Shown here piece by piece: positions 29,440 to 42,600 of a stretch of 64,000 nt of DNA; the first letter of the stretch is position 1; every line of letters starts with the position of its first letter. Origin of the DNA: Halichondria panicea (lineage: Eukaryota > Porifera > Demospongiae > Suberitida > Halichondriidae); NCBI RefSeq assembly GCF_963675165.1, contig NC_087380.1, forward strand, positions 3,773,803 through 3,837,802. The letters run 5' to 3'. Under the pieces are notes generated by a model, which was not told the DNA's origin, did not search any database, and was given only the letters and a program-made list of their open reading frames with translations. A program made the position numbers and the translations under genes.

Positions 29440-30140
29440 TTTGATATCCCCACAGCTGTTGGCTGTGGTTCCCTTGATCCTCTGGAACCACCACCTTTTA
29501 TGATTACTGCTACCGATACTGGATACAACATTGTTGGTAGTGAAACAAGAACTTGTGGAGCAAATAAGCAACTGGACCAACTGATGGAGTTTGGAGTTGA
29601 ACTGCACCAACTTTGAAGTATATGTTCTGTAATCATCAAACAATTACTGAACCATAATTATTATGCATTGTTTCCCTACAGTCCTGCATGTGTCCTATTA
29701 CTGATCCCTTCTCGAATGGAATGGTAATTAATCTACTCTGACAGTCGAAGGCCTATATAGAAGCTAGAACAGTGGCCACTTACTCTTGTAACCTGGCTAC
29801 CACTGAGTGGTACTACAGTGACGAGGGTTTGTGTGGATAAAATCTTAGGTGGATGGTGTTCAATTCAGCCAAATTGCAATTATAGTGAGTGTAACAAACA
29901 ATGCTACTGTAAGTTTAATATAAAAAAAAGTTATTGACTGTGGTTCCTGGACAACCCCTCCAACGAGCAGTGAACACATCCTCTGCATGTGATGACAGCT
30001 ACCTACACCTGACGCTGTACCCCTGGATACAATCTGGTGGGATCAGATAGAGATTGTCAAGCTAAATTGAAACAGGAGCTCCAGTGAACCTGCCTGTGAA
30101 TGTGAGTGTGACCTACACAGCTTCAATACTACTCACTGCT
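29440..30140 (+). pseudogene. Degenerate sushi (CCP) domains
   Basis: Plus-strand sushi-like remnants: TAVGCGSLDPLEPPPFMITA with TGYNIVGSETRTCG (29452-29560), CPITDPFSNGMV with RTVATYSCNLAT (about 29690-29810), and CTPGYNLVGSDRDCQA with SSEPACE (about 30025-30100). They carry indels and stops. The consensus (Cys, NG, ATYSC, GY.L.G, TC, W, C) matches the intact receptor on the other strand at 33.4-39.4 kb. The third piece ends in a donor; the following acceptor (CCCCTACAG, 30141-30149) adjoins the LINE. Confidence 0.65.
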
Positions 30141-30149
30141 CCCCTACAG

Positions 30150-32064
30150 TCAAATCCAAATTCTTTAAGTGCCTAGCAGGAAAACTGAATTCCCCTAGAG
30201 ATTTCTGGTCAGCATACAACAAACTCTCTCCGTCAAAAAACAGGACACCAGCTGAACTGAAAAACAATAATTCTACAGCAACAACCTCGCTCGAAAAAGC
30301 TGACATGCTGAACAGTGCATTTGCCTCATTCTTTACCTCACCAACTGCATCCTGCAGTACTCCTGAGGAAATGTCAACACCTAACTGCTCACTCAGTGAC
30401 ATTGAGTGCACCCAAGAGGAAGTCCACCATCTCTTATCTTCTTGCAAACCAAACACTGCCTCCGGTCCGGATGGCATTTCTAGCCAGATGATCCGAGGGA
30501 CTGCTACTGCTATTTCCCCAACAATCACCAAGATATTCAATAGATCGCTCAAGCAAAGCAGAGTCCCTGACCTGTGGAAAGTCTCCAATGTTACTCCTAT
30601 TCCGAAGGATGGGGATCCAACTTCTCCTAGCAACTACCGACCGATATCTCTCCTATCATTAATCTCAAAAGCTCTGGAAAGGATTGTACACAAGAGAATC
30701 TCAAAGTTCTTATACTCAAACAAGCTCCTGTCAAACTGCCAGTTTGGCTTCAGACCAAAATCTTCAACTCAAGAAGCCCTCCTATCTGTCACTAACGACT
30801 GGCACAAACTTCTAGAAAATGATCACCAAGTGGCAACTGTGTTCTTTGACGTCAAGAAAGCATTTGACTCAGTACCCCACCCACAGATCATATCCTCTCT
30901 CCAAGTCGTAGGCATTTGTGGCAACCTACTGCATTGGATAAAAGACTATCTTACCAACAGAGAGCAAAGGGTAGTCCTGGAGGGAACTATGTCAGACCCT
31001 GTTGCAGTGACCTCAGGTGTCCCACAAGGGTCAATCTTAGGACCGCTATTATTCAACATTTTCATGAACTCAATTGCTAACATCAACCTGTCCACCAATG
31101 CCAAACTCATTCTATACGCAGACGATATCCTTCTCTACAAGCCCATAAACTCGACAATTGAAACTCAGGACCTACAGGGAGACGTCAATGAAATAAACTC
31201 CTGGATGCAATCTCACGGCCTCACAGCAAACCACTCCAAGACCAAACTGCTTACAATAACTCGCTCTACACGCACTATCCCAATGAATATAGATATAAAC
31301 AACCATCGGATCTCCCCATGTGATACTGTAAAGTACCTTGGTGTTACTATCAATAATGATCTAAAATGGGCATGTCACATACACAACACCTGCAAGAAGG
31401 CCAAACAACATCTTGGCTTCATCCATCGCAAGTTCCATAAATCACCACCTCAGATCAGGAACCAGATCTACCGCACGGCTGTTCTGCCTAAGTTAGACTA
31501 TTGCGGTGCAGTCTGGGACCCTCATCACCACACAGATATAAAAAAACTGGAAAGCGTCCAAAAATTTGCAGGGAAAATTGTAACGAAGCAGTGGAGGGCA
31601 GAATACCCTGACCTGCTTGCCTCCTTAAACTGGAAACCTCTGTCATCTCGAAGGAAAAACCAAAAACTGAAAGTCTGCTTTAATATACTTAATAATTTAT
31701 CTATAATATCTCCCAATGTTTTCACCCTCCATCCTCGCCCTTCCCCCCGTCACCCTCATAATCAAATTATTTTTAAACCATATGTTAAAACCCTAGCCCA
31801 TAGACATTCCTTTTTTGTAAGCGTAATCCCCATTTGGAATTCCCTTCCCCTAAATGTTATCAGTAGCCCTAGCCCATCTGCTTTTAAATTATCCCTGTCA
31901 AAATTATAGCAATAAGTTAAAATTTTTTTCCTTTTTTCTTTTTTTCACTTAAGTACACCTGCACCTGCACCTTTACTTTTTGGTTATGGACTGACTTCAT
32001 TATTAGCTTCATTTAGCTACCTTGTCATATCCTGTATGCTTCCTCTGCATCAAACATTATAAAG

Positions 32065-32092
<28 letters not shown>
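30150..32092 (+). mobile_element. 5'-truncated LINE with open reverse transcriptase and poly(A) tail
   Basis: The frame is open from about 30149 to the stop at 31907-31909, with ATG at 30305 giving 534 residues. Reverse transcriptase motifs are in order: ASGPDGISSQMI, SNYRPISLLSLISKALERIV, VFFDVKKAFDSVPH, SGVPQGSILGPLLFN, LILYADDILLY (YADD catalytic pair) and KYLGVTIN, then a C-terminal LPKLDYCGAVWDPH and a WNSLP segment. The upstream endonuclease is missing. A 3' tail of about 150 bp ends in an A-run at 32061-32092. CR1/L2/Jockey-like LINEs nick DNA and copy their RNA into it. This copy cannot self-mobilise without its endonuclease, but the intact ORF indicates recent arrival. It splits the sushi/Ig relic. 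Confidence 0.92.
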
Positions 32093-32095
<3 letters not shown>

Positions 32096-32159
32096 CCCTG
32101 TCCATTGGTATAGCCTCGATCCCAGGCCGCACTTCATCAGGGGGCCAGTAAAGGACCAT

Positions 32160-32560
32160 TGGAGGCATCGTCTATACACTAACACTACACAGCTCTGCCT
32201 TTCTGTGATTGGAGAGGGATCCTCTGCCCTCACCTGTCATACTGAGCTCACCACCTCCTGCAGAGGAGAGGACAACAACGGCAATGCAACAACACAATTC
32301 TCTCGGAAGGTGGAGAGGACCAAATGAGGATGATATAAACTACTGGTGATGGGCACTACATAACCAGATTTACCAGCTCCTATCAGTCGGCACTGACCTA
32401 ACAGGACAGTTGTGCATGCCCTGAGCTGGTGTGGGGGTGTCCAGACATGTGTTCAAATGCAAGGTTTCATTGTTTGTGTGTGTGCTTTTTTATTGTTACC
32501 CCCCCCTCCCCCACAGCTATTGAGCTGAGTGAGCGCCCAGCGTACGCACCCACTGAATCT
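32160..32560 (+). pseudogene. Degenerate Ig-like domain beyond the LINE
   Basis: Plus-strand translation LSVIGEGSSALTCHTELTTS followed by CRGEDNNGNATTQ parallels GEDALGGLPSLACHTDLTAC in the first Ig-like domain of the intact receptor. The frame is then lost. A short acceptor-bounded piece at about 32517-32562 ends in TAA. This is probably the downstream part of the sushi relic at 29.4-30.1 kb. Confidence 0.6.
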
Positions 32561-33408: not shown

Positions 33409-36400
33409 TCAGTTATCGTATATTCCTCCAGCTGGAGCCTCTGTGTTGCCACGCCCACCCACAGTCAAGTATGAATCGTTATGCGTTAAGTTGGAGATGG
33501 AAATCTCTTCTGGAATCTCTTCATAAACACCGCTGTTCTCAAAGGTATTGGCTGTACCTTGATCCAGGTAAGCGAGGGGGATCCCATGAGGAACAGTCCT
33601 GTGTGTAAAAAGGTAATATTACGATAGCTAACACCACCAGTTTGTCTACTGTGGATGCGGTGCCAAAACACAATCCAAGCCACAATTAAAATGCAGACAT
33701 GAATATCATAGTTGTAGTCATTCTAGCCTTATCGTGCAGAAAAACCTACTAGATTCCCCGCTTGAAACTATCGTCATTCAACAAGGTAAATAAGTGATGC
33801 ACTTGACCAACAATCGTATACAACATAGACTTCCACTAGTCTCGGATCCAGGCTGTGCTTTAGAAAAAAACGTCTGGTCAAGTTCCTATGTGAAACTCGT
33901 GCAAAAGTCGAGGAATTTTTTGGGCCAGTAATTAACCGTACCAGACGTGCTTGCCCACGATCAGTCATGAATATAATTATGAATCACGATTACAGAATTA
34001 GGCCTGTAATCAATAATGGCTGATTGTGGGCGAGCACATCCGGTGCGGTTAATTACCAGTCCAAGAAATTCCTGGACTTCTGTTTCACATAGGAACTTGA
34101 CCAGACATTCTTTTCTAAAGCGCAGCCTGGACCCGAGACTAGACTCCCGCCGGAGTCTAAAAACTTGCACTTTTGTTAGGGGCAAACTGAAACGCATGGT
34201 AACCCCTTTTTTTTAACCCATCACAACTATTAATTGCCAAAGAACTAATTCAATCAGGCCAAAACCGGACCACTTTTCGTAGTTAGCTAGGTATTGGTCG
34301 TCATTATATGTAATATAGCTTCTTGTTATTTCTTGCCTCCAAACCATGCATGGCCTGACCACTATCAAATTGATTCCTATATTTATGTAGCTGCAACTTG
34401 GTACTACCATAGATAGAAGAGTAAGAGGGAGTCTTGTATTACTAAAACGTGTAAGCGCCCATCTACAGCTTTAGCTTGTTGACACAGCCTCGATTAAACC
34501 GCGGGTAAAGCGGATGTTACACGAGGGTACTTCCGTTACCAACCCCTCTTCCTCTTCTAACTATGGTACTACCAACCCAACTCACATTTTCCCTCCTCTC
34601 TTGTACCGGAGCACTAAGTAGGTCACTATCACTACACCAGTCACTACCACAACTACCAGGGCCACCACCACTCCTCCCACCACAGCACCAGTGTTGTCAG
34701 AGGGAGAGCTCTCATCAGTAGAGGAGGCTGTTAATGGAATGTATATGGAATGTATGAGACAATGATTGTTGTTAGCACTAACCTAACACAATACACGCTG
34801 TGCTCATCCCACCACTAGTAGGCACCACACAACAGTAGAGGCCACCAGGAGCAGTAGCTGTTCCGCTCATCAGACTGACACTCATATGACCTCTTCTAAC
34901 ATACAACGCTCCATCCTCCATAACAACAGAACCGTTAGGATAGTACCAATCTCCTGTGTTCCCATCACAGCAGCCAGCAAGGTCAGTATGACAGACGAGG
35001 CTACGCCCCTCTCCCACGGAGGACAGGGGGATTTCGGAGAGCCCAGACAGGTAATTGGTGGAGGAGAGAGACAAGTACACAGGGGGAGGGGCTATAGGGG
35101 GGTTGTGATAATTTTAGTTATTACAGACATAACATTTTAGTCCTTACTCTGACAGGATGGTAAGCTGCTCCAGTTGCCAGTATTCAAACATGTGATCATT
35201 TCAAAGCCAATAAAAATAAATCCAGTTTCACAGGTGTAGGTCACCTCTCCTCCGATCATTGTGTTGGTTGGCTGTCCGGAAGAACCGTTGTCAATAGAGG
35301 GAGGAGGCCCACAGGAAACTGCACCATATCCTTATAGAGTCAATTAACCAATTAGCGTATTTTCTTACCTCGACAAGTTGGAGTTGACCCGCTCCATGTT
35401 CTGTCATTTTGACAAACTCTGACACTGTCTCCATTGAGAGTGTAGCCATCGTTGCAGCTGTGTGTAGCTATAGTGTTGATAGGTCTGATGTCAGTGGATC
35501 CCATGCTGTAGGAGATCATCCCATTGGTCAGTGGGAGCAAGTCCTCGCAGATTACTGCACAGGTACAGTCACCAAACAAACAGTAAATTCATACCACTTA
35601 CGCTGACAAGTTGGAACTGACCCATTCCACACTCCATCACTTCCACAAGTCCTGGTGGTGTCTCCATTGAGAGTGTAGCCATCGTTGCAGCTGTGTGTCG
35701 CTATGGTGTTGATAGGTCTGATATCAGTAGATCCCATGCTGCTATAGGAAATGGCTCCATTAGGCAGAGACAATAAGTCGGAGCAGATAGCTACAAGGGA
35801 ATAGATACATTCAACAAACAACAGTTAAAATTCATTCCACTTACGCTGGCATACTGGAACTGACTCACTCCACACTCCATCACTCCCACAAGTCCTGGTA
35901 GTGCCTCCATTAAGAATATAGCCAGGGTTACAGGTGTAGGTGGCCACAGTGCCAACTGGTTTAGGACTAACAGTACCCATATTGTAGCCAATCATTCCAT
36001 TAGTCAGAGCAGTCAGGTCAGAACAGGTGGTGGGTGGAGGATCAGTGGGTCCAGTGTTTGCTGTAGGGTACGTTGTGAAATCCTCAACATAACTACACAT
36101 ACTGTAACTATCAACCGAAACTATCGATCCAAACAATCTTCATTGGCGCAATACTCACATAAGTTAAAAGCCACATAGTATACTACGGTTACAGAACTCA
36201 CCATGACAAGTTGGAGCTGACCCACTCCATGTTCCATCATTCTGACAAACTCTGAAACTCACTCCAATCAGAATGTAGTCATTGTCACAAGTGGAAGTAG
36301 CAGTGGTATTAATAGGTCTGCTGTCAGCAAGTCCAGCGTCATAGGCAATGGCTCCGTTTATTAGTGGTTGTAAATCAAAACAAGTTTCTGAAAAATTAAT

Positions 36401-39400
36401 AATAGTGAGCTTATAATTATTATAATTATTAAATTCAATTCTACTTACGCTGACACACTGGAGCTGATCCACCCCAACTTCCTCCACTCCCACAAGTCCT
36501 CATTGCCTCTCCGACCAGACGGTAGCCATTGTTACAAGAGTGAGTAGCTGTACTGCCCACTGGTCTGGTGTTGATGGATCCAGCAGTGTAGGAGATTATT
36601 CCGTTGATCAGAGAAGGTAAGTCAGAGCAGATTACTACATAGATACAGTCACCAATTTAAACCAGTCAATCCATACCACTTACGCTGACAAGTTGTAGCT
36701 GACCCACTCCACATTCCATCACTGTCACAAGTCCTGGTGATGTCTCCATTGAGAGTGTAGCCAGTGACACAGGTGTAAGTGGCCACAGTGTCCACTGGTC
36801 TCAGATTAACAGTCCCTATATTGTAGCTGATCATTCCATTGGTCGGAGCAATCAGATCAGAACAGGTGGTGGGCGGAGGATCAGTGGGTGGGAGATTAGT
36901 GGGTCCAGTGTTCGCTATAGGGTGCGAGATCCTCAACATAACTATATTATCTTCACATACTATACCAAAAATTTGATCCACACAGGGTTTATGCGAGTAA
37001 TTATTAGTTGAAACACACACTGTACAAGAGTTATAGAACTCACCTTGACAAGTTGGAGTTGACCCACTCCACGTTCCATCATTCTGACAAACTCTGAAAC
37101 TCACTCCAATCAGAATGTAGTCATTGTCACAAGTAGAAGTAGCAGTGGTATTAAGAGGTCTGTTGTCAGTAAGTCCAGCGTCATAGGCAATAGCTCCGTT
37201 CATTAGTGGTTGTAAATCAAAACAAGTTTCTGAAATAGTGAGCTTATAATTATTAGCAGTATACAAATTCAATTCCACTTACGCTGACACACTGGAACTG
37301 ACCCACTCCAGCTAATCCCACTCCCACAAGTCCTCATTGCCTCTCCGACCAGACGGTAGCCATTGTCACAGGAGTAAGTAGCTGTACTTCCCACTGGTCT
37401 GATGTTGGTAGATCCACCAGCACTGTAGGTGATCATCCCGTTGGTCAGAGAGGGTAAGTCAAAACAGGGTATCTCTGCATGATATGGGAGTCGATGCACT
37501 CAACAAACAAACAGCACAATGTCCATTACACTTACGCTGACAAGTTGGAGCTGACCCACTCCACATTCCATTATTTCCATCAATCTCACATGTCCTGGTA
37601 CTGCCGCCATTGAAAGTGTAACCAGGATTACAGCTGTAGGTGGCCACAGTGTCCACTGGTCTGTTGTTAGTAGATCCAGCACCATAATCAACGACCCCAT
37701 TTGTCAGTGAGGGTAAATCAGAGCAGGTTATCACTATGGTAAAAGGTACACACTCAACGTACACATTATACACAACCAGCCATTCCTTACGATGACACAC
37801 TGGAGCAGACTCAGTCCAGCTCCCTCCACTCCCACAAGTCCTCATTGTCTCTCCGACTAGACGGTATCCATTGTCACAGGAGTAAGTAGCTGTACTGCCC
37901 ACTAGTCTGCTGTTGATGGATCCACCAGCACTGTAGGTGATCATCCCGTTGATCAGAGAGGGTAAGTCAGAGCAGAGTATCTCTGCACGGAAGTCGATGC
38001 ACTCAACAAACTAACAGTACAAAGTCCAATCCACTTACGCTGACAAGTTGGAGCTGACCCACTCCACACTCCATTATTTTCATCACTCCTACATGTCCTG
38101 GTGCTGCCGCCATTGATAGTGTAGCCAAAGTTACAGCTGTAGGTGGCCACAGTGTCCACTGGTCTGCTGTTAGTGGATCCACCACCACCATAATCAACAA
38201 TCCCATTTGTCAGTGAGGGTAAATCAGAGCAGGTTATCACTATGAGAACAGGTACCGTCAGCGTACACATTTTTACACATCAGTCATTCCTTACGCTGAC
38301 ACACTGGAGCTGTTGATGAGCTCCAGGTTCCATCACTCTGACAAGTCCTCACTGGCACTCCAACCAGAGTGTAGGGACTGAAGCAGCTGTAAGTAGCCAC
38401 TGTTCTGTTGTTAATGGATCCACCAGCATAGGTTATGCCTCCATTAGTGATGGCTGGGAGATTATCAAAGCATGTGGCTGAACCAACATTGACTGCGGAA
38501 GCGGTGAGAACAGGTCAGTTTATATGGCCGGTTTTAACAAACTGTTATAGATCATCTTACTTACACGTTAGGTAAAACACATAAGCGCTAAGAAATCTTT
38601 TACTAACATGATAGTACCTTGACAAAAAATTGGTGCAAGTCCACTCCATATTCCATCACTTCCACAAGTCTTGGTGGCGTCTCCATTGAGAATGTAGCCA
38701 GTGTCACAAGTGTAGGTGGCCACAGTACTCGCACCCAGTGTTAGGGCAGAATAGGAGATCATTCCATTGGTGATAAGAGGAAGAGACAGACACACCACTA
38801 TCAGGGATATTGTAAATATTATCAGTATAGTCACATCCAGATCCATGCACTCACCAAGGTTGACACAGAGGGTCATATCTCCTTCTGTAGTTGGTATGGT
38901 GCAGCAATAGGACCCTGTTGGAGAGAGGGGGTTGTTTCCATCTCTACGAGACAGCCTGATGAGTTGGGGACCATTCCTCACCATGAAGAACTGTTGTCCA
39001 GCAGACAACGAAGCGCCATTTCCCACTAGCTCACTCCCATCAGGATACCTCCACTGTCCTAGTCCACCCATACCATTGTTGTCAGCAACACTTCTACAGC
39101 AGGCAGTGAGGTCAGTGTGACAGGCGAGAGAAGGGAGACCACCCAGAGCATCCTCTCCAATATCAGTCATGAGGATCTCAGTATTGTTATTAGTGATGTT
39201 CGGACCCGATCCCAGTGTCAGATAGACTGTTTAGTGATACAAGGTTTAAAATGTTATAAAGCCATACCCCTGCATGTACCAATATTAAAGCATACTTATA
39301 GCACTGCAGTCTGCAGTCCACTAGCTGATATACATTACATGATTAGATCTAGACCTACCTTGCTGTCCCCAGCAGGTGGACACAACATACAGCAACAGCA

Positions 39401-39428
39401 GAAGTTGAACACCACCTTGAGTCTCCAT
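33409..39428 (-). CDS. Type I membrane receptor: Ig-like, 14 sushi/CCP, Ig-like, TM, four-tyrosine tail
   Basis: Nineteen exons join in frame to 1,259 residues. Signal peptide 39428-39359 (METQGGVQLLLLLYVVSTCW); Ig-like 39226-38855; sushi 1-14 at 38797-38618, 38477-38295, 38239-38039, 37982-37791, 37733-37536, 37474-37283, 37229-37044, 36914-36684, 36634-36449, 36387-36202, 36060-35845, 35790-35602, 35554-35369 and 35318-35148; Ig-like 35091-34783; TM 34727-34586 (GAVVGGVVVALVVVVVTGVV then RYKRGGK); tail 33598-33409. Ectodomain exons are symmetrical phase 1-1; the TM exon leaves phase 2, which fits the tail exon exactly. Each sushi exon shows four Cys, an NG turn, a Y.C, a GY.L.G and a Trp. 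The tail has YLDQ, YEEI, YLTV and a C-terminal YDN. Sushi domains bind proteins or glycans; the tail suggests SH2-dependent signalling. Ligand is unknown. If the donor after TM is skipped, translation stops at 34582. Confidence 0.88.
33837..34141. repeat. Fold-back element with ~125-bp arms in the receptor's last intron
   Basis: Left arm 33837-33969 (TAGTCTCGGATCCAGGCTGT…) and right arm 34015-34141 (…CAGCCTGGACCCGAGACTA) are inverted and about 80-85% alike by eye, with a ~45-bp AT-rich loop. It is a MITE-like insertion. Confidence 0.8.
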
Positions 39429-39669: not shown

Positions 39670-42600
39670 ATGGAGGGTACTCCACTACTGGATGACTGCA
39701 AGAGTGGCTGGCTAATGGTAGAAAAAGACTTCTCTGCTCGTCTATTCAAGCAAGAACAGCTCAAATATGGTAAGACTACGAGACAGCCACATATTAATCT
39801 AGTCTGTCGTGTCTGACAACAAATTGATCTCATAGTAATGCACCATGCTACGTGTACTTTGCAATGGTACTATAAGCAGTGGTACTATAACTCTCCCCAT
39901 CCTCAGCTCTCCAGTGCATGGGCCGTGACCCGTCAGACAAGGTAGTGTCTCGCTACTGGGCTCAGTGTGGAGGGTCCATGTCCTACGAGCAGTTCACACT
40001 GGTCATGAAGAGAGAGCGTAAAACCACCATGAGGGATCTCATGAGTTCATTCAAGAGAATTGACCTGAATGGAGACGGCTACATCACGGCACATGAGCTG
40101 CACAGGGTGTTGACCAAGGTGGGTCCTACTCGTTGCTATGGTAAAAACACTACATTTTATTTACAGTTTAAAACACCGTTACAAATGTGCATTGCAAATA
40201 CCATTGGTAAGTACATGTGTCTGCAATCTGGACCTTAGCTTTTGGCCGTTATACACCGGATGGTGGTTATTCAAGGGTGGCCGTTAAGAGGGGCTCCACT
40301 GTATGTATATGGTGGTCCAAGAATGGATGCTACAGTGTATGTACACGTACTATATACATGTAATACCGGTCTGTAGTTGTGAGCTTCTAATAATATAATG
40401 GTTGTTGAGCTCATGTACTCCTGGCTCTGACAATTGACAATGTTATTAAGAGAATACTGAGTCACTCAGTATACACTTACGTACATATTTGTTTGTTCCC
40501 TGCTGCAGCGTGGGGAGAAAATGTCACATGATGAGGTCCAAGCTATTATTGACGAGGCCGACCAAAACGGAGATGGAAAGTTAGACTATGCTGAATTTGC
40601 TCACATGCTGTTGAACACGAGTGAGGAGTGTGTCCATGCAGCCAAGCAGAAAGCCGGTCAATCGAGTAAAAGGGCTTCTATCTCCCATAAAAAAGGCATC
40701 CCTAACAAACACAAACACAGGGGAAGCGTGAGAAAGAGCAGCTATGATCGTCAAAAACAACGAGAAGATATCAGGGCTCAGTTATTCCCACAAGGTTCAA
40801 CTAACGGCTATCACAGAGAGGATAGGCTTACATCACAGTCTCCTGTGTCACTAACACCATCCACAATCACACAAGCTGTTTCCCCGCCTCACTCCCACCT
40901 CCCTTCATTGGTTACTCAAAAACCTGTCTCTACAACTGAAAGCTTGTTGGACGACACTCTAACATCGACTGTAACAAATCCCCAACCTCTTTTAGAAAGT
41001 ACTGAGCTAACCAAAACACCTCAAATTGAAGTACAAACTACTAAACTAAAAGCCGAACCTCCACTAGTTGAGAGCAGACCCACGGAAGAAGCTGTTAGCT
41101 CCCTACCTGATCCACTCGAACTCAGAGCCAACTCGTTAACCAAGCTGCCACCATTAAAAAGAACACCTCTACCACCTCTAATACCACCTATTGTGACCAC
41201 TCCACAGTCTAACTTGCCTACTCAAGAACAACAACAACATGAAGTCAATAATGCTCGAAAAGAAGAGAATGGAGAGGAAGATCCTTCTCGTGAACAAGGC
41301 TCGGAAAAAGAAGCAGCAAGTTCTGAGAAAGAGCCAGCTGCTACTGAACCAGATGAACAACCAAAATTTACAGAGCCGCCTGGCAATGGTAGTGAAAGCA
41401 AACCACGAGCGGGGAATGGTGACTCACAACAGGAACACAAGGAGCCATCAGACAACACGGCTGCTGGTGACTCTGAGGGTGTGGATGGAAAACGGCAAAC
41501 CGATCACTTACAAAACGGTGGAAGTGAGGGGGCGAGAAGTGAGACCGCTCCCCCTGCTTCTGTGGTGTCTTCACCACCAAAGAAACCAAAAAATATTCAG
41601 GTGAGCTTGAGCTGACGCTGTGAATACACTAAACTGTTAATATGAGCTTCGATTGAGATTTTGTACGTTGTTAAGGTTACAAGCATGTAATAACTGTAAA
41701 AGTCAATCGCCCTTGAGTTTGTGCCCATACATTTGGCCTTACATACGCAATCTTTTTATACAGTCATGGAATAGTATCACTGGAAAGGGGTGCTTCTACC
41801 TTGACCTAGATGAGAGCCCACCCCCCAACTCACAAGACGAGGATGGTGTCGTACACTGTCATCATTACCGCCTTAGACTGCCCTCCCCCACCAATGTCTG
41901 GATTGAAGTGGGTGTGGCTAAACCTGGTAACCCAGCAACAGACACACTTCTCTTTGTGTTCCACACTGATGAGACTGAGGAGCCCACTGAGATGATAGCG
42001 TACACTCAACACAGGATTGGAGAGGTGGGTAATTATATGCATCAACATGTACACTTTCATGTGATGATAAACATTCATAACCGTTTTAACATTGGACAAT
42101 CTAAACTCTGAACTCAAGCCTAGCAATAGGAGTGTTACCATTACTACATTGTACATGTATTTGCACCAGTGTGTTTTAAATCTGAACTTGGTTACATGTT
42201 CATGCATAATTATACGTAGGTGTCACTTGTGTATACAATAACATTAATACATTAGTGTTACCATTACAACATTGTACATGTATTTGCACCAGTTAAATTG
42301 AACTTGGTTACATGTTCATGCATAATTATACGTAGGTGTCACTGCATGTGTATACAAATACATTAGTGTTACCATTATTACTACATTGTACATGTATTTG
42401 CACCAGTGAGTTTTAAATCTGAATTTGGTTACATGTACATACATAGTGTCACTGCATGTGTATACAACTACACTCGGATGTAGCTATATTTTTACACTGT
42501 ACGTGACATTGTGTGTGTTTCCCTCACCTCACATACAGAGCTGGGTATGCCGGCTTGACCTTGACGCTGGCACCTATGCTCTCATTCCCTTCACCTCTCG

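What the first reader, a model, noticed from the sequence alone, without database searches (positions are those of the whole stretch)
33409..39428. Complete Ig-CCP14-Ig transmembrane receptor with a four-tyrosine signalling tail
The sequence shows a full 19-exon frame: signal peptide, Ig-like, 14 sushi exons, Ig-like, TM and a 62-residue tail. The tail has tyrosines in YLDQ, YEEI, YLTV and a terminal YDN context. From SH2-motif knowledge, pYEEI suits Src-family SH2 domains, YxxQ suits STAT3-type, YxN suits Grb2, and YEEI-x14-YLTV is ITAM-like but with wider spacing than the usual 6-8. A sushi/Ig receptor that would signal through SH2 proteins in an early animal is a good candidate for an immune, self-recognition or cell-adhesion receptor. 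The function is inference.
Basis: partly seen in the sequence, partly recalled or inferred. Interest (0 to 1): 0.82.

Follow-up and report, generated by a model that had tools for sequence, protein, structure and literature searches.

The report
Outlier of a sponge receptor complex
This sponge gene encodes a cell-surface receptor belonging to a large clustered family whose members share one kind of outer part but carry different inner parts (tyrosine-bearing tails or phosphatases), making it a candidate sponge counterpart of the receptor clusters that other animals use to tell self from non-self or to sense microbes.

Summary
A 19-exon minus-strand gene (39428-33409) encodes 1,264 aa: signal peptide, Ig, 14 CCP/sushi, Ig, TM and a 62-aa tail. 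Paralogs repeat the questioned TM/tail junction.

It is not a lone receptor. The genome holds 42 matching tail exons (two with internal stops), 39 on one contig, largely in tandem arrays of Ig-CCPn-Ig-TM-tail genes. In four sampled stretches of that contig, related ectodomains are followed by receptor tyrosine phosphatase (two stretches) or by two other tyrosine-rich tails.

YLDQ is private, so the STAT3 reading fails. No tail is an ITAM. The window's tail is its fastest-evolving part.

Src-, Shark- and SHP-type genes are present. Silicatein-like genes indicate a demosponge.

Most likely this is a phosphotyrosine-docking arm of a multigene recognition-receptor complex. It works like ascidian fester co-receptors or hydroid Alr proteins but is a member of neither. 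Ligand and role are unknown.

The parts
39359..39428 (-). Exon 1: start codon and signal peptide (METQGGVQLLLLLYVVSTCWGQQ)
   Evidence: the three paralog E1 matches shown are 83-87% identical over 22-23 residues
38855..39226 (-). Exon 2: membrane-distal Ig-like domain (Ig1)
   Evidence: phase 1-1 exon; 69-76% aa identity to 13 paralog Ig1 exons; family profile hits IgSF chains
38618..38797 (-). Exon 3: CCP/sushi 1
38295..38492 (-). Exon 4: CCP 2
38039..38239 (-). Exon 5: CCP 3
37791..37982 (-). Exon 6: CCP 4
   Evidence: 69% identical to a CCP in L032
37536..37733 (-). Exon 7: CCP 5
37283..37474 (-). Exon 8: CCP 6
   Evidence: 72% identical to a CCP in L032
37044..37229 (-). Exon 9: CCP 7
36684..36914 (-). 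Exon 10: short P/T-rich linker plus CCP 8
   Evidence: 73% identical to a CCP in L032
36449..36634 (-). Exon 11: CCP 9
36202..36387 (-). Exon 12: CCP 10
35845..36060 (-). Exon 13: linker plus CCP 11
35602..35790 (-). Exon 14: CCP 12
35369..35554 (-). Exon 15: CCP 13
35148..35318 (-). Exon 16: CCP 14
34783..35091 (-). Exon 17: membrane-proximal Ig-like domain (Ig2, type A)
   Evidence: 85-93% aa identity, dN 0.03-0.07 with 11 of 27 paralog Ig2 exons; 34-41% with the other 16
34586..34727 (-). Exon 18: stalk and TM segment, ends in phase 2
   Evidence: donor conserved in 30 of 34 TM hits; 50 TM-like matches at E<=0.01, of which 42 have E below 1e-3, one of these in a long frame on C10 that also holds a kinase match
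33409..33598 (-). Exon 19: 62-aa cytoplasmic tail with YLDQ, YEEI, YLTV, YDN and the stop
33836..34142 (.). MITE-like inverted repeat in the last intron (outer arms 61 nt, 93% complementary)
29518..32555 (+). Relic of a second family member (tail-C type) facing the receptor tail to tail; its Ig exon is split by a reverse-transcriptase element
   Evidence: blastn of L031 to 29518-29621, 29937-30152, 32156-32276, 32508-32555; RVT_1 E 1.9e-45 in ORF 30071-31906

Best explanation
The gene is a divergent, isolated member of a clustered multigene receptor family of a demosponge. Members share an Ig-CCPn-Ig type of ectodomain and differ in what follows the TM exon. SHOWN by sequence: intact window gene model; tail-A genes in tandem arrays; related ectodomains followed on the same strand by tyrosine phosphatase exons (L030, L032) or by two other tyrosine-rich tails (L029, L031) in the four stretches sampled; core tyrosines YEEI and (A/S)Y(S/L/G)T kept across divergent paralogs; Ig1 amino-acid variation highest in loop-like segments beside conserved Ig framework; Src-type, SH2-ankyrin-SH2 kinase and SH2-SH2-PTP genes present. 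INFERRED: Ig1 binds a ligand on another cell or a microbe; the CCP rod sets reach or adds contacts; a Src-type kinase phosphorylates the tail; SH2 proteins dock at YEEI and Y(S/L)TV, with YDN as an optional Grb2-type site; sister receptors with similar ectodomains and phosphatase cytoplasmic parts oppose this, so the response reflects the balance of docking-tail and phosphatase receptors engaged. The role is most likely self/non-self recognition or microbe sensing. Confidence is about 0.85 for the family and its clustering, 0.6 for phosphotyrosine docking as output, and 0.4 for an immune or allorecognition role.
For: Gene model and 14 Sushi. 42 tail matches: 39 on C4, 2 on C1, 1 on C5. Arrays such as 12 tails in C4:1.10-1.15 Mb; 11 of the 35 tail units show the whole order Ig-CCPn-Ig-TM-tail inside the stretch read. 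Ig exons: 152 matches, 150 of 262 candidates scored; of the 137 C4 places I entered, 133 lie below 3.2 Mb. PTP exons: 176 matches, 150 of 361 candidates scored, the rows shown mostly on C4. Pfam Y_phosphatase with HCSAGVGRTGT behind Ig-CCP6-Ig-TM in L030 and behind CCP-Ig-TM in L032. Tail B 35 matches, tail C 14. YEEI-site Tyr 36 of 36 and second-site Tyr 35 of 36 tails read. In five tails chosen as divergent (9 of 10 pairs 39-54% identical), three tyrosines are among 12 invariant columns. Ig1 pN/pS about 1.55 after WxYP and 0.97 between first Cys and Trp, versus 0.09-0.26 around CHTDL and GSYCC. SH2 71 matches; Shark-, SHP- and Src-type genes. Ig exon within 6 kb upstream on the same strand for 32 of 39 tail-A, 9 of 12 tail-C and 25 of 50 PTP exons; shifted means 3.3, 1.8 and 6.9.
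Against: No expression, splicing, polymorphism or binding data. The window tail is the fastest part of the gene (dN 0.34-0.57, dS 0.37-0.68 against 33 paralogs), so relaxed constraint is possible. Most tails are recent duplicates (median tail dS 0.14), so their shared tyrosines are weak evidence; the divergent set is small and chosen by me. No ITAM in 34 tails, ITIM pattern in 3. The link of outputs to ectodomains was read in only four stretches; in L032 no distal Ig was found in the 10 kb read. Position test: tail-B exons 9 of 33 within 6 kb (shifted mean 5.3, max 16), no better than chance; PTP exons within 3 kb 12 of 50 (shifted mean 3.7, max 14), inside the range of the shifts. Several tail units lack an Ig2 or a TM hit (L005_2615, L007_1214, L018, L026_271). 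Ig identity is only moderately supported by sequence; AlphaFold models are poor (pLDDT 47.6 and 42.0) and Foldseek found nothing at E<=0.001. One Ig1 window with ratio above 1 (TIPTTEGDMT, 1.32) rests on very few changes.
Confidence: 0.6

Rival explanations
1. The family consists of microbe-sensing (pattern-recognition or phagocytic) receptors rather than allorecognition receptors.
For: Sushi- and Ig-domain genes are among those that respond to bacterial products in other sponges (PMC8242945 and PMC6208332, passages). Expanded arrays are common among pathogen receptors (general knowledge).
Against: Nothing here separates the two. The apparent pairing of docking tails with phosphatases resembles tolerance circuits at least as much (inference).
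Confidence: 0.4
2. The conserved YxxPhi motifs are AP-2 endocytic sorting signals, and the tail mainly controls surface turnover.
For: YEEI, Y(S/L)TV and YETV fit YxxPhi as well as SH2 motifs (recalled rule). 33 of 34 tails have at least one YxxI/L/V.
Against: Acidic +1/+2 residues and an optional terminal YDN fit SH2 docking better (recalled rules). Related ectodomains are followed by tyrosine phosphatase exons.
Confidence: 0.2
3. The window gene is an ageing, relaxed or decoy copy whose tail no longer matters; the family is functional but this member is not.
For: It lies apart from the arrays. Tail dN/dS 0.52-1.10 against 33 paralogs, 21 of them between 0.75 and 1.0 (my division). It lacks the YETV and DYxY tyrosines that 32 of 34 tails have. 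MITE-like insertion in the last intron. Neighbouring member broken by a retroelement.
Against: The 1,264-aa frame and splice sites are intact. Ig2 is under strong constraint (dN 0.03-0.07, dS 0.20-0.39 against its 11 close relatives). YEEI, YLTV and YDN are retained.
Confidence: 0.25
4. General cell-adhesion or developmental receptors with no recognition role.
For: Ig proteins of sponges have mostly been discussed as adhesion molecules (PMC11999971, passages).
Against: Large tandem expansion, variable CCP number, and loop-concentrated variation in Ig1.
Confidence: 0.15

Closest known systems
Botryllus fester co-receptors (FcoR) and fester family (ascidian fuhc locus)
   Same: Type I receptors with Ig and sushi domains, a TM and tails with YxxI/L/V core motifs, in multigene clusters; 53 FcoR loci so far (PMC12065747, section 11).
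   Different: FcoR order is IgV-sushi-IgC2-IgC2 with one sushi, and some carry ITIM or hemITAM. Here the order is Ig-CCPn-Ig with up to 14 CCPs, the hemITAM pattern is absent from 34 tails, and relatives carry phosphatase exons. Homology was not tested beyond domain type.
Hydractinia Alr family (allorecognition complex)
   Same: Clustered Ig receptors, 41 members (PMC11999971, passages); ITAM/ITIM motifs on candidate genes (PMC12065747, passages).
   Different: Alr ectodomains are described as V-set and I-set Ig; here CCP repeats form most of the ectodomain.
Receptor-type tyrosine phosphatases (CD45-like in use)
   Same: In L030 and L032 related ectodomains and a TM are followed by PTP exons with HCSAGVGRTGT; L032 has a further PTP-like stretch (E 2.8e-12).
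   Different: The window gene itself has no phosphatase. CCP-rich tandem receptor phosphatases appeared in none of the titles or abstract starts listed.
Vertebrate leukocyte receptor clusters (paired activating and inhibitory receptors; recalled)
   Same: Homologous ectodomains linked to opposing cytoplasmic outputs in a gene complex.
   Different: Opposition here would be docking tail versus built-in phosphatase; ITAM adaptors were not searched for.
Complement receptors CR1/CR2 (recalled)
   Same: Long CCP array, TM, short tail.
   Different: No flanking Ig domains in those proteins.

Membership tests
Botryllus FcoR | Ig and sushi ectodomain, single TM, cytoplasmic tail | tested here: met
Botryllus FcoR | Order IgV-sushi-IgC2-IgC2 | tested here: not met
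   Ig-CCP14-Ig; other members Ig-CCPn-Ig
Botryllus FcoR | YxxI/L/V core tyrosine motif in tail | tested here: met
   2 in the window; 33 of 34 tails have at least one
Botryllus FcoR | ITIM or hemITAM in some members | tested here: inconclusive
   ITIM pattern 3 of 34, hemITAM pattern 0 of 34, window none
Botryllus FcoR | Encoded next to and paired with a three-TM fester gene | not tested
   no search for such partners
[quoted passage not shown]
   14 Sushi repeats
ITAM receptor | YxxL/I-x6-8-YxxL/I | tested here: not met
   0 of 34 tails; window spacing x14
Immunoglobulin superfamily | Ig core (Cys, Trp, Leu, GxYC) with sequence or structure match | tested here: met
   invariant Cys, Trp, Leu, Gly, Tyr, Cys in 11 members; PDB profile hits mainly IgSF, single-Ig chains at 0.0014-0.011. 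Against: no Pfam match for the window exons, AlphaFold and Foldseek uninformative
Sushi/CCP superfamily | Pfam PF00084 above cut-off | tested here: met
   14 stretches, 408 bits
Receptor tyrosine phosphatase (relatives L030 and L032, not the window gene) | Extracellular domains, TM and PTP domain with HCxxGxxR in one protein | tested here: inconclusive
   order on one strand and compatible splice phases for most joins tried; no join was found between the proline-rich exon and the FGAYV exon because the script took the neighbouring copy; no transcript
Sponge allorecognition gene | Alleles that segregate with graft fusion or rejection | not testable with these tools
   one assembly, no phenotypes

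The most novel reading that the evidence does not exclude
This contig region is a sponge recognition-receptor complex. Over about 2.5-3 Mb, well over a hundred tandem genes share variable-loop Ig-CCPn-Ig ectodomains and divide into phosphotyrosine-docking receptors (three tail classes) and receptor tyrosine phosphatases, so that one recognition module drives opposed writing and erasing of the same signal. This would be the sponge analogue of the ascidian fuhc and hydroid allorecognition complexes, and would place phosphotyrosine-balance recognition in the earliest animal lineages or show it to be convergent.
Probability: 0.3. Interest if true: 0.95.

Novelty: new variant of a known kind. Interest (0 to 1): 0.8.

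Why it matters
Sponges discriminate self from non-self with remarkable specificity (PMC5450542, start of abstract). In that grafting transcriptome study, the passages I saw report no significant enrichment of cell-adhesion or aggregation-factor genes. A physically clustered, expanded family with a plausible binding module, loop-concentrated variation and apparently opposing phosphotyrosine outputs gives a concrete candidate locus. It can be tested by genotyping graft pairs and by standard SH2 binding assays.

Tried and rejected
Lone receptor: rejected after 42 tail matches were found. ITAM: rejected by pattern. STAT3-type YLDQ: rejected as private. Motif abundance in the single tail: not above chance. 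Structure: AlphaFold of Ig2 and Ig1 from two-row alignments gave pLDDT 47.6 and 42.0, and Foldseek gave no match at E<=0.001, so no structural claim rests on them. Receptor kinases with the same ectodomain: in the two stretches of the C4 kinase array read (L033, L034) no Ig or CCP hit appeared and the ectodomain looks unrelated. Relatives outside this genome: none confirmed in viral contigs (9 pattern matches) or prokaryote genome contigs (95 matches); other sponge genomes are not held. Papers: the ten answered searches showed, among the titles and abstract starts they listed, no report of a sponge Ig-CCP receptor or phosphatase cluster; several searches matched more papers than they listed. 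I saw passages of PMC8242945, PMC12065747, PMC5450542, PMC11999971, PMC6208332, PMC5336234 and PMC12909245, and the whole of section 11 of PMC12065747. The position test did not link tail-B exons to the Ig exons listed; that link rests on reading L029 alone.
Full report
OBSERVATION. The minus strand of the window holds a complete 19-exon gene from 39428 to 33409. The product is 1,264 aa: signal peptide, Ig-like exon, 14 CCP exons, Ig-like exon, stalk with TM, and a 62-aa tail. All introns are phase 1 except the last, which is phase 2. Pfam gives 14 Sushi matches. The Ig exons match no Pfam model at E<=1. A profile of 11 family members lists mainly Ig-superfamily chains in the PDB; the top figure (titin 2.2e-6) sums several weak domains, and single-Ig chains reach 0.0014-0.011. 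With the invariant Cys-Trp-Leu-GxYC core I take the Ig assignment as sound but divergent. AlphaFold and Foldseek were not informative.

THE QUESTIONED JUNCTION. Homology settles it as well as it can without RNA. The TM exon ends in a GT(A/G)AG donor in 30 of 34 TM-model hits, and the tail frames of 33 paralogs start just behind an AG.

A FAMILY, NOT A SINGLE GENE. The window lies on contig C4 of a 131-Mb genome. A real paralog tail used as query finds 42 tail exons: 39 on C4, 2 on C1, 1 on C5; two have internal stops. I read 36 of the 42. C4:1.10-1.15 Mb alone holds 12 tails. Of the 35 tail units annotated (window included) show the whole order Ig-CCPn-Ig-TM-tail inside the stretch read, with n from about 3 to 14 by model hits (some exons are split between two hits). 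Many others are cut off upstream, and a few lack an Ig2 or a TM hit (L005_2615, L007_1214, L018, L026_271). The membrane-proximal Ig comes in two types: the window's Ig2 is 85-93% identical to 11 of 27 and 34-41% to the other 16. An Ig2 search finds 152 Ig exons (150 of 262 candidates scored). Of 137 C4 places that I entered, 133 lie below 3.2 Mb; I counted 13 rows on other contigs.

DIFFERENT OUTPUTS ON RELATED ECTODOMAINS. I sampled four Ig-rich stretches of C4 without this tail. L030 reads Ig-CCP6-Ig-TM and then, on the same strand, tyrosine phosphatase exons with HCSAGVGRTGT. L032 reads CCP-Ig-TM, a proline-rich juxtamembrane exon and phosphatase exons, and then the start of a second such gene; no distal Ig was found in its 10 kb. 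Several exon joins in L032 have compatible phases, and its TM exon donor is phase 2 as in the window gene. The script did not find every join, since it took the neighbouring copy of one exon. L029 carries a tail with YEMI, YEEV and YEII, and L031 a tail with YEDV and YDN. Genome-wide there are 176 PTP exon matches (150 of 361 candidates scored), 35 tail-B matches and 14 tail-C matches, the rows shown mostly on C4. CCP exons of the window are up to 73% identical to CCP exons in L032, and Ig1 is 67% identical to the Ig1 in L029. Position test, Ig exon upstream on the same strand within 6 kb: PTP 25 of 50 (shifted mean 6.9, max 20 of 500 shifts), tail-A 32 of 39 (3.3, 13), tail-C 9 of 12 (1.8, 10), tail-B 9 of 33 (5.3, 16). 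Within 3 kb: PTP 12 of 50 (3.7, 14), tail-A 28 of 39 (1.9, 9), tail-B 2 of 33 (3.1, 12), tail-C 9 of 12 (1.1, 6). So tail-A is firmly linked and tail-C exceeds its shifts at 3 kb. PTP exceeds its shifts at 6 kb only, and tail-B is not linked by this test.

THE TYROSINES. The YEEI-site Tyr is present in 34 of 34 tails and in L041 and L042. The (A/S)Y site Tyr is present in 34 of 34 and in L041; in L042 the frame is interrupted there. The terminal Y(D/N)(N/K) is in 19 of 34. YLDQ is in the window alone. The window lacks two tyrosine sites that 32 of 34 have. In five tails chosen as divergent (9 of 10 pairs 39-54% identical, one pair 80%), the tyrosines of YEEI, AYxT and YDN are among 12 invariant columns. 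Most other tails are recent copies, so that small set is the fair test.

RATES. Window against paralogs: Ig2 type A dN 0.03-0.07, dS 0.20-0.39; Ig1 dN 0.15-0.20, dS 0.33-0.53; tail dN 0.34-0.57, dS 0.37-0.68. The tail is the fastest part, contrary to what one would expect if the whole tail mattered; only short sites are held. Within 14 Ig1 exons (91 pairs, not independent), overall pN/pS is 0.61. It reaches 1.55 just after the Trp-x-Tyr-Pro motif, 0.97 between the first Cys and the Trp, 1.06 before GSYCC and 1.32 (few changes) after it, against 0.09-0.26 around CHTDL and GSYCC. The first two would be the CDR2- and CDR1-like loops of a V-type Ig (inference).

SIGNALLING PARTNERS. SH2 matches number 71. 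Reading loci shows SH2 plus kinase in one frame, closest in the PDB to Src (L037); SH2-ankyrin-SH2-kinase, the Shark layout (L035); and SH2-SH2-PTP, the SHP layout (L036) (layout names recalled).

ORGANISM. Three CGASYAF sites cluster on C2 (reversed-pattern control 0). The one exon that I compared has silicatein alpha as its best PDB match, E 9e-12, ahead of cathepsin S at 1.4e-8. This fits a demosponge.

COMPARISON. The nearest described systems are the ascidian fester co-receptors (Ig, sushi, Ig, TM, YxxI/L/V tails, clustered; PMC12065747 section 11) and hydroid Alr proteins (passages). The window gene works like them in outline but fails defining features of each (domain order; CCP content), so it is not filed as a member. 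Tandem CCP-rich receptor phosphatases beside docking-tail receptors appeared in none of the titles and abstract starts listed by my ten answered paper searches.

VERDICT. Observation confirmed, interpretation partly supported. The gene is an outlier of a much larger and more interesting receptor complex.

Noticed in passing
window 29518-32555 (+): Degraded tail-C type family member, tail to tail with the receptor; its Ig exon is split by a reverse-transcriptase element followed by an A-rich run near 32,080.
   Followed up: partly
window 33836-34142: MITE-like nested inverted repeat in the last intron of the receptor gene.
   Followed up: partly
window 39470: An in-frame upstream ATG (MFVLEVCQVLGVAAMETQGG) precedes the start used in the model.
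   Followed up: no
window 40461-41612 (+): Open frame with EF-hand-like sequence (DEADQNGDGKLDYAEF) just upstream of the receptor, on the opposite strand.
   Followed up: no
L033, L034 (C4:2.68-2.72 Mb): Tandem receptor tyrosine kinases with an ectodomain that looks unrelated, near the Ig-CCP region.
   Followed up: partly
L010 and L011 (C4:2.92-2.94 Mb): Two very similar neighbouring family genes with an extra Ig; their TM exon is followed by gtgaca in place of the usual gtgagt.
   Followed up: no
C4:5.18-5.50 Mb: Six SH2-domain matches spaced along one stretch of the same contig, possibly an expanded SH2 family.
   Followed up: no
C1:15.5-17.4 Mb: Very many kinase-domain open frames on both strands.
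   Followed up: no
tail-A paralogs, e.g. L006, L007, L016, L017, L019: 15 of 34 tails lack the terminal Y(D/N)(N/K); eight of them end in GGIQ, suggesting two tail versions.
   Followed up: partly
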